Shown piece after piece: positions 24,447-52,894 of a stretch of 64,000 bases of DNA. The notes under the pieces are model-generated. The model was not told the origin of the DNA and searched no databases. It saw nothing but the letters and a program-made list of their open reading frames with translations. The translations under genes were made by a program, and so were the position numbers. Each line of letters opens with the position of its first letter. Within the stretch, counting starts at the first letter, position 1. The DNA is from Gemmatimonadota bacterium (GTDB lineage Bacteria > Gemmatimonadota > Gemmatimonadetes > Longimicrobiales > Gaopeijiaceae): the NCBI GenBank assembly GCA_022827345.1, contig JAJDTB010000030.1, positions 62,001-126,000 on the forward strand. The letters are read 5' to 3'.

Positions 24447-26402
<1,956 letters not shown>

Positions 26403-26479: not shown

Positions 26480-26521
26480 TATGTAATGTTCGCTTTACAT
26501 AATGTAAAGTATACTTTACAT
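26480..26521 (-). repeat. Tandem pair of 21-bp dyad-symmetric units: ATGTAAAGTATACTTTACATT / ATGTAAAGCGAACATTACATA (minus strand)
   Basis: Direct reading. Unit 1 contains a perfect 20-bp palindrome ATGTAAAGTATACTTTACAT (26502-26521) and overlaps the ATG-TAA end of the acyltransferase gene. Same unit family as 51626-51667. Confidence 0.85.
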
Positions 26522-50168: not shown

Positions 50169-51053
50169 ATGCGGGTCATCGAAATCCCCCGCTCCTTCGA
50201 CTACCGCAACATCGAGGCGCTCTATCGCCAGATCGACATGGATCGGCCCGGCCCGGTGCTCTTCGATCTGCGCAGGCTCCGCTGGGTCGATCCCAACGGC
50301 ATGCTCGGCATCCTGGCCGCCGGAAAGGTGGCCGCCGAGGCCGGATCCGCGCCGCGGATCTCGCTCCCCGACGAGCCGGAGATCACCAGCTACCTGGATC
50401 GCATGGGGTTTCGCGAGGCTGCCGGGGAGGTGTTCGAGTTCGGCGCCGCCTCGAAGTGGCGCCGCCGCGCGCGGGCTTCCGACGTGCTCCTCGAGATCAC
50501 CCCCGTCACGAGGAACTCGGACGTGCACCAGGTGGTGGACCGGGTGCAGTCGCGGGCGGGCGCCATCCTCTCCAACACCCTCGGCTACCCGGCGTCGGCC
50601 GTGGTCCAGTTCTCCGTGATTCTCTCCGAGGTGTGCCAGAACATCATCGAACACGCCGGGCGGCCCGGTTGGGTCGCCGCCCAGTCCTACAACTGGAAGC
50701 AGCGCCTCGGACGCCACGTGGCCATCATCTCGGTGGCCGACATCGGCCGCGGCTTCCGCGCCTCCCTGGAGGACGAGCACGCCTCCCGCTTCGGTGAGCG
50801 CTGGGGCGACGTGACCGCCCTCGAGGCCGCTTTCCTCATGGGACTGACCCGCTTCCCCGACACCGGCCGGGGACAGGGGATCCAGCAGATCCGCAAGCAG
50901 GTCGGGCGCTGGAACGGGCTCCTTTCGATCCGCAGCGGCAGCGCGCGGATTGCGGACACACCGGATTGGAGCAGCAAGCCTCCCCTCGAAGAGGGCCTGC
51001 GCCCGTTCCCCGGAGCCCAGATCAACATCATCCTCCCGGAGCGCACAGAATGA
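50169..51053 (+). CDS. STAS-like domain fused to HATPase_c-like (anti-sigma-factor-kinase type) domain
   Basis: N-terminal RPGPVLFDLRRLRWVDPNGMLGILAAGKVA (STAS-like); SVILSEVCQNIIEHAG (N-box-like); ISVADIGRGFRASL and GRGQGIQQIRKQV (GHKL G-box-like). Confidence 0.78.
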   Translation: MRVIEIPRSFDYRNIEALYRQIDMDRPGPVLFDLRRLRWVDPNGMLGILAAGKVAAEAGSAPRISLPDEPEITSYLDRMGFREAAGEVFEFGAASKWRRRARASDVLLEITPVTRNSDVHQVVDRVQSRAGAILSNTLGYPASAVVQFSVILSEVCQNIIEHAGRPGWVAAQSYNWKQRLGRHVAIISVADIGRGFRASLEDEHASRFGERWGDVTALEAAFLMGLTRFPDTGRGQGIQQIRKQVGRWNGLLSIRSGSARIADTPDWSSKPPLEEGLRPFPGAQINIILPERTE

Positions 51054-51631
51054 GCCAGCCGCGGCCGGCTTCCGTCAGCATCGACGTGGGCGCGATCGTC
51101 GCCCGCACGCTCGCGCCGCTCCGTCCCAACCTGGTCACGCGTCCAACGGGGAGGGCGGTTCGCGCAGCCATCGAGGAACGCCTCCGCGGAGCCGCGAGGG
51201 CGCCCTTCGTATCGCTCATCGACTTCACGCGAATCCGCGTGCTGGATTTCAGCTGCGCCGACGAAATCGTCGCCAAGCTCCTGGTCAGGTATATGAAGGC
51301 CGACCGCCCCCGCGATGTCTTCTTTCTCTTCCGGGCCGTCGGGGAGGTGCACGGGCAGTCGGTGGAGCAAGTCCTGCGAAGGCACGGACTGGCTGCGGTT
51401 TGCGACTATGCCAGGGACGGCTTCCGGCTTCTCGGGTCGGTTTCGGAGCGGGAGAGGACAGCCTGGCAGACGCTGGAGGTGCGCCGGAGGATCGGGCCCG
51501 CGGGCGTGGCCGACGCACTGGGGACTCGCGGCGATACGCTGCTGCGAAGGCTTGCCGAGCGCCGGCTGGTCTTCCGCGAACCCAACGGCACGGCGCTCGC
51601 TCTCAGTGCCCTGAGCACGTCACATATGTAA
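51050..51631 (+). CDS. STAS-like (DUF4325-type) protein with C-terminal winged-HTH-like segment
   Basis: FVSLIDFTRIRVLDFSCADEIVAKLLVRYMKADRPRDVFFLFRAVGEVHGQSVEQVLRRHGLAAVC; RRRIGPAGVADALGTRGDTLLRRLAERRLVFREPNG; ATGA overlap with the upstream gene; ends ...STSHM*. Confidence 0.65.
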   Translation: MSQPRPASVSIDVGAIVARTLAPLRPNLVTRPTGRAVRAAIEERLRGAARAPFVSLIDFTRIRVLDFSCADEIVAKLLVRYMKADRPRDVFFLFRAVGEVHGQSVEQVLRRHGLAAVCDYARDGFRLLGSVSERERTAWQTLEVRRRIGPAGVADALGTRGDTLLRRLAERRLVFREPNGTALALSALSTSHM

Positions 51632-51667
51632 TACAGACATGACAAAATGTAATGTGGACATGACATT
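51626..51667 (+). repeat. Tandem pair of 21-bp units: ATGTAATACAGACATGACAAA / ATGTAATGTGGACATGACATT
   Basis: Direct reading. Starts on the ATG-TAA end of the STAS-like/wHTH gene and lies 40 bp before the trans-sulfuration gene. Unit consensus shared with 26480-26521. Confidence 0.85.
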
Positions 51668-51706: not shown

Positions 51707-52894
51707 ATGAGCTCAAACGGTACGAATCCGGAACACGGACCAGCGACCCACGCGGTCCACGCAGGGAAGGGCGAGGTGCGCCCCGGCGGCCCCGTGGTCG
51801 ATCCCATCGTCCGCAGCTCCACCTTCTACTGGGCCGGCCCCCACGACGGGATCGACCTTCAGTACAGCCGTTACGGCAACAACCCCAACCAGCGCTCCGT
51901 CGCGGCCACGATCGCCGCGCTCGAAGGCACCGAGGACGCGCTGGCGCTGTCCAGCGGCATGGCCGCCATCTCGTCGACCCTGCTCGCCTGCGCCGAAGCG
52001 GGCGACCACATCGTGGCCAGCACCCACCTCTACGGCGCCACCCACGCCCTCCTGGCGCACGAACTGCCCCGGCGCGGCATCACCACCACCTTCGTGGACC
52101 CGGACGACCCCGGCGCCTGGCGCGCGGCCCTTACCGCCGACACACGGGTCGTCCTCATCGAACTCCCCACCAACCCCACCCTGCGCGTCTTCGACATCGG
52201 CCCCCCGCGCGACGCCGCGCGCGACGCCGGCGCCGTCCTCGCCGCCGACATGACCTTCGCGACCCCGATCAACATCCGCGCCGCCCGGCACGGCGTCGAC
52301 GCCGTCATCCATTCGGCCACCAAGTACCTCGGCGGCCACTCCGACCTGATCGCCGGTGCCGTCGCGGGAAGCGCCGCGCTCATCCGGCGCGTCACGAAGA
52401 TGATGAAGCTCTACGGCGGCTCCATCGATCCTCAGGCGGCGTGGCTGCTCGAGCGCGGCATCCGCACCCTGCCGGTCCGCATGGAGCGCCACAACCGCAC
52501 CGCGCTCGCCCTCGCGCGGTGGTTCGCCGGCGTCGGCGGCGTGCGGCAGGTCATCCATCCCGGCCTCCCCGGCCACCCGGACCACGAGTGCGCCGCCCGC
52601 ATGCTGGACGGCTTCGGCGGCATGGTGTCGATCGTCCTCGAGGGGGGCGGCGCGGCCGCCGACCGCTTCTGCTCCAGCCTGTCGCTGGCGGCCGCGGCCC
52701 CGTCGCTGGGCGGCGTCGAGACGCTCGTGTCGCAGCCCCGCCACACCTCGCACGTGGACCTGTCCCCGGCCGAACGGGACGCGCTGGGCATCCCCGACGG
52801 TTTCGTGCGCATCTCGGTGGGCCTGGAGGACCTGGAGGACCTCAAGGCCGACTTCAGGGCCGCGGTGGCCGCATCGGTTCCGGCTGCCGTATAG
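51707..52894 (+). CDS. PLP-dependent trans-sulfuration enzyme (cystathionine gamma-synthase / methionine gamma-lyase family)
   Basis: QYSRYGNNPNQRSVAATIAALEGTEDALALSSGMAAISSTLLA...IHSATKYLGGHSDLIAGAVAG (PLP lysine)...YGGSIDPQAAWLLERGIRTLPVRMERHNRTA. Confidence 0.95.
   Translation: MSSNGTNPEHGPATHAVHAGKGEVRPGGPVVDPIVRSSTFYWAGPHDGIDLQYSRYGNNPNQRSVAATIAALEGTEDALALSSGMAAISSTLLACAEAGDHIVASTHLYGATHALLAHELPRRGITTTFVDPDDPGAWRAALTADTRVVLIELPTNPTLRVFDIGPPRDAARDAGAVLAADMTFATPINIRAARHGVDAVIHSATKYLGGHSDLIAGAVAGSAALIRRVTKMMKLYGGSIDPQAAWLLERGIRTLPVRMERHNRTALALARWFAGVGGVRQVIHPGLPGHPDHECAARMLDGFGGMVSIVLEGGGAAADRFCSSLSLAAAAPSLGGVETLVSQPRHTSHVDLSPAERDALGIPDGFVRISVGLEDLEDLKADFRAAVAASVPAAV

What the first reader, a model, noticed from the sequence alone, without database searches (positions are those of the whole stretch)
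26480..26521. 21-bp tandem dyad repeat that starts on the stop codon of the acyltransferase gene
On the minus strand the acyltransferase ends ...GAC AAT ATG TAA, and the repeat begins at that ATG: ATGTAAAGTATACTTTACATT followed directly by ATGTAAAGCGAACATTACATA. The first 20 bp are a perfect palindrome, and the period is 21 bp (about two helical turns). It sits between two convergent genes (acsA and the acyltransferase), an odd place for a classical operator. It is AT-rich in a very GC-rich context. The half-site pairs (TTTACAT-N-ATGTAAA) resemble the TACA/TGTA dyads described for BlaI/MecI-type repressors; that resemblance is my inference.
Basis: partly seen in the sequence, partly recalled or inferred. 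Interest (0 to 1): 0.72.

Follow-up and report, generated by a model that had tools for sequence, protein, structure and literature searches.

The report
Scattered tandem operator at gene ends
The 41-bp repeat is one of roughly a hundred copies of the DNA docking site of a single regulator (an HTH protein fused to a molybdate-type sensor domain) that have spread through the chromosomes of one Gemmatimonadota genus, mostly to the ends of unrelated genes, where selection appears to preserve them for a reason nobody yet knows.

Summary
The repeat is real: two 20-bp dyads, ATGTAA-N8-TTACAT, 21 bp apart (window 26481-26521), with a second pair at 51626-51666. The genome holds 235 dyads against 11 for a reversed control. 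They almost always come as exactly two at a 21-bp period, hug gene 3' ends, favour convergent gene pairs and avoid divergent ones. Sixteen arrays shared with a species of ~95% identity show 2.8% divergence in half-sites against 19% in spacers, so they look functional. There is no half-site covariation, which suggests a protein on duplex DNA rather than a hairpin.

The likely binder is an Xre-HTH/PBP_like regulator that heads a molybdate-type ABC operon. Every one of the 22 array-bearing species of the genus encodes it with an array 72-150 bp upstream. The one species without arrays lacks it. A sister genus has one array, at that gene. In eight unrelated bacteria an exact array lies in the leader of an operon for a homologous mini-HTH protein. 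BlaI and PadR do not fit.

So this is the dispersed operator of a known kind of regulator. What the 3'-end copies do is open: roadblock/insulator, titration sites or inherited debris. In some species a 247-bp MITE-like repeat carries copies.

The parts
26481..26521 (.). 41-bp tandem operator array, two 20-bp dyads, period 21
26481..26500 (.). dyad 1: ATGTAATGTTCGCTTTACAT
   Evidence: 0 mismatches to ATGTAAN8TTACAT
26502..26521 (.). dyad 2: ATGTAAAGTATACTTTACAT, perfect palindrome
   Evidence: 0 mismatches
26516..26518 (-). TAA stop codon of the acyltransferase, supplied by dyad 2
24447..26402 (+). acsA, acetyl-CoA synthetase; its 3' end faces the array
   Evidence: PF00501, PF13193, PF16177
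26516..27508 (-). hexapeptide-repeat acyltransferase-like gene, convergent with acsA
   Evidence: PF00132
51626..51666 (.). second tandem array of the same family in the window; shared with G009
50966..51631 (+). gene whose TAA stop codon lies in the second array
   Evidence: no Pfam match
51707..52894 (+). Cys/Met-metabolism PLP enzyme gene starting 40 bp after the second array
   Evidence: (PF01053)

Best explanation
The element is a double operator: two dimers of an Xre-type HTH regulator with a C-terminal PBP_like (molybdate-type sensor) domain sit side by side on one face of the DNA, each on ATGTAA-N8-TTACAT, two helical turns apart. The ancestral job of such a site is autoregulation at the promoter of the regulator-modA-permease operon, which sits elsewhere in this genome (G000:C32:211510-212616, L274). 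In this genus the operator has multiplied to about a hundred sites per genome, mostly at the 3' ends of unrelated and often convergent genes, and the half-sites are kept by selection. My preferred reading of the 3'-end copies, including the one in the window, is that the bound protein is a local roadblock or insulator that limits read-through and antisense transcription from the facing gene. Shown here: architecture, copy number, placement, constraint, co-occurrence with the regulator, an array at its promoter in every genus genome that encodes it. Inferred: binding itself, the molybdate/tungstate ligand, and the roadblock function (the 0.8 below is for the operator identification; the roadblock part alone I put at about 0.35).
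For: Copy number and strict two-copy, 21-bp architecture. Half-site divergence 9/320 against 64/336 in spacers between G000 and G009, Fisher p=6e-12, still p=2e-6 against half the spacer rate to allow for ascertainment. No compensatory change between half-sites, so duplex binding by a dimer. Phyletic match: regulator in all 22 array-bearing species of the genus, absent from G008, the only one with none. Array 72-150 bp upstream of the regulator gene in all 22 and in G033; also L056, from another Gemmatimonadota MAG with an 85%-identical regulator. G033's only array is at this gene, followed by ModA-like and permease genes. A blind exact-pattern scan of 84,980 genomes hit 12 loci outside Gemmatimonadota; 8 have the array in the leader of an operon encoding a 64-91-aa HTH protein homologous to this HTH domain (E 1e-9 or better, all within 541 bp, against one weak hit in 1.19 Mb of control DNA). 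Placement: 23 of 58 convergent (18% expected, p=1e-4), 9 of 58 divergent (33% expected, p=0.003), median 11 bp from the nearest 3' end.
Against: No binding data. The 3'-end positions are mostly not shared between distant species. Convergent gaps with arrays did not clearly have weaker hairpins once fragment length was matched (p about 0.09), so the roadblock idea gains no direct support. G010, with the most arrays, has a regulator with a shortened sensor domain. Three alphaproteobacterial loci and one Bacteroidales locus, all AT-rich, have exact arrays with no such HTH gene beside them. Constraint against flanking DNA is weaker than against spacers once ascertainment is allowed for (p=0.04).
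Confidence: 0.8

Rival explanations
1. Titration (decoy) sites: the copies bind the same regulator but have no local effect; together they buffer its free concentration and set the threshold for the mod operon.
For: Many sites near unrelated genes with no shared function; the autoregulatory arrays carry 2-6 mismatches and so look weaker than many dispersed ones; 3' ends are the least harmful places.
Against: Each of ~100 decoys would be nearly neutral, yet half-sites at individual arrays are strongly constrained.
Confidence: 0.25
2. Remnants of mobile-element spread: arrays are cargo of MITE-like repeats and persist as debris.
For: A ~247-bp repeat with inverted ends GCAGYCCGTGGACA/TGTCCACGGACTGC carries an array at its centre and is abundant in G010, G014, G012, G021; the array holds ~59 bits where ~15 would locate 120 sites, which suggests copying.
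Against: Only 1 of 57 sampled G000 arrays has MITE flanks; flanks are otherwise unrelated; debris would not keep half-sites while spacers drift.
Confidence: 0.2
3. BlaI/MecI/CopY- or PadR-type operator.
For: Superficial TACA/TGTA and ATGT/ACAT likeness.
Against: BlaI is present in array-free relatives too; only four PadR genes; the gene that does carry an array at its promoter throughout the genus is the Xre/PBP_like one.
Confidence: 0.03
4. Chromosome-organisation sites of the MatP/Noc/SlmA kind, read by the same or another protein.
For: About a hundred intergenic sites scattered over the chromosome.
Against: In the complete chromosome G021, 68 sites show no clear origin/terminus bias (quintiles 7, 13, 13, 16, 19; p about 0.07-0.08) and random spacing (gap CV 0.98); copy number varies about tenfold between species.
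Confidence: 0.07
5. RNA or single-strand hairpin element (REP-like or terminator-like).
For: Palindromic, extragenic, near gene ends.
Against: No covariation between half-sites at any position; AT-rich; the strict 21-bp phase points to the DNA helix.
Confidence: 0.05

Closest known systems
CylR2 of Enterococcus faecalis (PDB 1utx, 2xiu) and other ~65-aa Xre/PbsX-type mini-HTH regulators
   Same: HTH of the regulator matches CylR2 and a PbsX-family regulator (9k3w) in sequence; the mini-HTH operons found here carry the same tandem array in their leader
   Different: the Gemmatimonadota protein adds a PBP_like sensor domain and has about a hundred dispersed sites; CylR2's own operator sequence could not be compared (paper not held)
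HTH + PBP_like (PF12727) regulators and MoeA-PBP_like proteins
   Same: domain architecture; the C-terminal part matches the C-terminal part of NCBIfam PRK14498, a molybdopterin biosynthesis protein (below cut-off); operon with ModA-like and permease genes
   Different: no genome-wide dispersal of operators was found described in the papers searched
ModE molybdate repressor
   Same: sits at a molybdate-type transporter operon
   Different: different DNA-binding domain and site (from own knowledge)
REP/BIME and MITE repeats
   Same: high-copy, extragenic, gene-end bias; part of the arrays ride on a MITE-like element
   Different: most arrays are naked 41-43 bp sites whose half-sites, not whole sequence, are conserved
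Mycobacteriophage L5 stoperators (own knowledge)
   Same: one repressor with many dispersed sites near gene ends
   Different: here dyad-symmetric tandem sites in a chromosome; not homologous

Membership tests
Operator of the Xre-HTH/PBP_like regulator | array at the regulator's own promoter | tested here: met
   22 of 22 genus genomes that encode it plus G033, 72-150 bp upstream
Operator of the Xre-HTH/PBP_like regulator | presence/absence of regulator matches presence/absence of arrays | tested here: met
   present in 22 with arrays, absent in G008 without
Operator of the Xre-HTH/PBP_like regulator | direct binding | not testable with these tools
   needs EMSA or DAP-seq
CylR2-type mini-HTH operator | same HTH subfamily at the same DNA motif in unrelated taxa | tested here: met
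   8 of 12 non-Gemmatimonadota exact arrays lie in the leader of an operon with a homologous mini-HTH gene
BlaI/MecI/CopY operator | regulator distribution follows the arrays | tested here: not met
   PF03965 in 58 of 59 genomes with or without arrays
PadR operator | enough PadR genes, or one at the arrays | tested here: inconclusive
   four PF03551 genes in the genome; their own promoters were not examined
MITE | terminal inverted repeats and repeated flanks around the element | tested here: not met
   1 of 57 G000 arrays; not at the window array
REP/hairpin repeat | compensatory pairing between arms | tested here: not met
   paired frequencies about equal to independence at all ten half-site positions
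MatP/Noc/SlmA-like site | ori/ter-biased distribution | tested here: inconclusive
   weak trend, p about 0.07-0.08, G021

The most novel reading that the evidence does not exclude
A one-operon molybdate-type regulator has become a genome-wide 3'-end factor in one bacterial genus: its double operator was copied to about a hundred gene ends, and the bound protein now insulates convergent genes, so that metal status could tune read-through and antisense transcription across the genome.
Probability: 0.25. Interest if true: 0.88.

Novelty: new variant of a known kind. Interest (0 to 1): 0.62.

Why it matters
It assigns, by comparative evidence, an operator (tandem ATGTAA-N8-TTACAT, period 21) to a widespread but little-studied HTH subfamily. 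It also gives a clear case in which the site of one local regulator expanded from one copy to about a hundred within a genus, at gene ends rather than promoters, under measurable constraint. That makes the question of what transcription-factor sites outside promoters do testable in a natural experiment, with G033 (one site) and G008 (no regulator, no sites) as built-in controls.

Tried and rejected
PadR hypothesis (only four genes). BlaI (distribution does not follow the arrays). Hairpin/REP reading (no covariation). All copies as MITEs (1 of 57). A Mo-enzyme regulon near the arrays: no molybdoenzyme family among the 25 commonest families of the flanking proteins; families are mixed (the lists are truncated at 25). 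Arrays replacing terminator hairpins: apparent (p=0.001), but it fades with matched fragment lengths (p about 0.09). Chromosome-organiser distribution: not significant. A search for the same architecture with another consensus in G026 found no period-21 excess. The operator of CylR2 could not be read. Literature searches gave no prior description of this dispersal (open-licence papers only).

Full report
What is there. The window holds, at 26481-26521, two 20-bp dyads ATGTAA-N8-TTACAT joined by one base. The array lies between acsA (+) and a hexapeptide acyltransferase gene (-) and supplies the TAA stop codon of the latter. A second array (51626-51666) sits at the stop codon of another gene, 40 bp before a Cys/Met-metabolism gene. 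By chance 0.04 dyads of this quality are expected in the window; four are seen.

Genome-wide. The own genome (4.79 Mb in 75 contigs) has 235 dyads at <=2 mismatches against 11 for the reversed pattern, and 72 stringent pairs against none. In 0.86 Mb sampled, 59 of 63 arrays have exactly two copies and 41 of 42 neighbouring hits are 21 bp apart. Sequence conservation covers about 43 bp and stops there. The arrays carry about 59 bits where about 15 would locate 120 sites (inflated somewhat because sites were chosen by pattern). Pairing between half-sites never clearly exceeds independence, so the symmetry reflects a protein dimer on duplex DNA.

Placement. Of 58 arrays between genes, 23 are convergent (18% expected by available space), 26 tandem and 9 divergent (33% expected); p=1e-4 and 0.003. 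The nearest gene 3' end is a median of 11 bp away. Twelve of 63 arrays overlap a stop codon. Flanking genes have no common function.

Constraint and turnover. G009, about 95% identical, aligns with the whole neighbourhood. Sixteen orthologous arrays differ at 2.8% of half-site positions, 19% of spacer positions and about 10% of flanking bases. The half-site deficit survives a conservative correction for ascertainment against spacers (p=2e-6) and marginally against flanks (p=0.04). The window's own array is missing in G009, where the junction keeps only GCTTTAC: a deletion. No other relative whose acsA junction could be read carries an array there. G000 and the distant G021 share at least two array positions.

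Phyletic range. Pairs occur in 22 of the 23 genus members searched, 15-141 per genome at this stringency, none in G008 and none in 36 genomes of other genera. With single dyads, G033 of another genus stands out: one pair, 22 bp apart. Named records with exact pairs are Gemmatimonadota MAGs such as SB0664_bin_10, RHO3_bin_71 and jk18x1bzbins.83; that these are sponge symbionts is from memory.

The binder. G033's pair lies upstream of a gene for an HTH (PF13560/PF01381) plus PBP_like (PF12727) protein, followed by ModA-like and permease genes. That protein was then searched: present in all 22 array-bearing genus members, absent in G008. All 22 and G033 have a tandem array 72-150 bp before its start. 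In G000 the regulator is also followed by a modA-like gene. Independently, the exact-pattern scan had returned 12 loci outside Gemmatimonadota (Bacillales, Actinobacteria, Balneolaceae, Bacteriovoracaceae and others). In eight of them the array lies in the leader of an operon for a 64-91-aa HTH protein homologous to this regulator's HTH; all eight hits fall within 541 bp of the array, against one weak hit in 1.19 Mb of control. Regulators with the recognition-helix segment SRQAI (or SRQAV, SRHAI) go with arrays; the diverged ones in G035, G038 and G023 read SRQSY or SRQAY and have none. The HTH matches CylR2 and a PbsX-type regulator of known structure. BlaI (PF03965) is in 58 of 59 genomes irrespective of arrays.

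Mobile copies. In G010 and G021 part of the arrays sit in the middle of a ~247-bp repeat with inverted ends GCAGYCCGTGGACA...TGTCCACGGACTGC, found throughout the genus. In G000 this holds for 1 of 57 arrays, and other flanks are unrelated. So the repeat explains some of the copy number, mainly in G010-like genomes, but not the constrained naked arrays. G010's regulator has an intact HTH but lacks about 75 residues of the sensor domain.

Function. Identification of the site as this regulator's operator is well supported, short of binding data. Function of the dispersed copies is not shown. I prefer a local roadblock/insulator because constraint acts on single sites and placement favours facing 3' ends. 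The one direct test tried (weaker hairpins where arrays sit) was inconclusive. Titration sites and old mobile debris remain open; a chromosome-organising role is less likely.

Verdict. Observation confirmed; BlaI reading not supported; new variant of a known kind (an autoregulatory operator dispersed to gene ends across a genus).

Noticed in passing
L127:7149-7893 (G021:C1:207149-207893); G000:C19:43435-43681 and others: ~247-bp MITE-like repeat with inverted ends GCAGYCCGTGGACA/TGTCCACGGACTGC, carrying a tandem-dyad array in its centre; three 249-bp tandem copies in G021; no autonomous partner was looked for.
   Followed up: partly
L083, L084, L086 (acsA 3' end): A different dyad-like repeat, CCCTAACGTTACGTCAGGGTT, sits at the same gene end in other species.
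   Followed up: no
L290 (G010:C53): The genome with most arrays has a regulator with intact HTH but about 75 residues missing in the PBP_like domain.
   Followed up: partly
L068:5205-5245, L074:2642-2682, L076:4318-4358: Three related alphaproteobacterial genomes share an exact array at the same place with no HTH gene beside it.
   Followed up: no
G000 C29 34301-34420 and 114887-114964 against G009: Apart from the array deletion, only two other alignment-breaking indels (about 120 and 75 bp) occur in about 172 kb of synteny, both just after stop codons.
   Followed up: no
L024:6725-6765 and L128:3603: An array position between a Fic-like gene and a DUF4212 gene is conserved between distant species G000 and G021.
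   Followed up: partly
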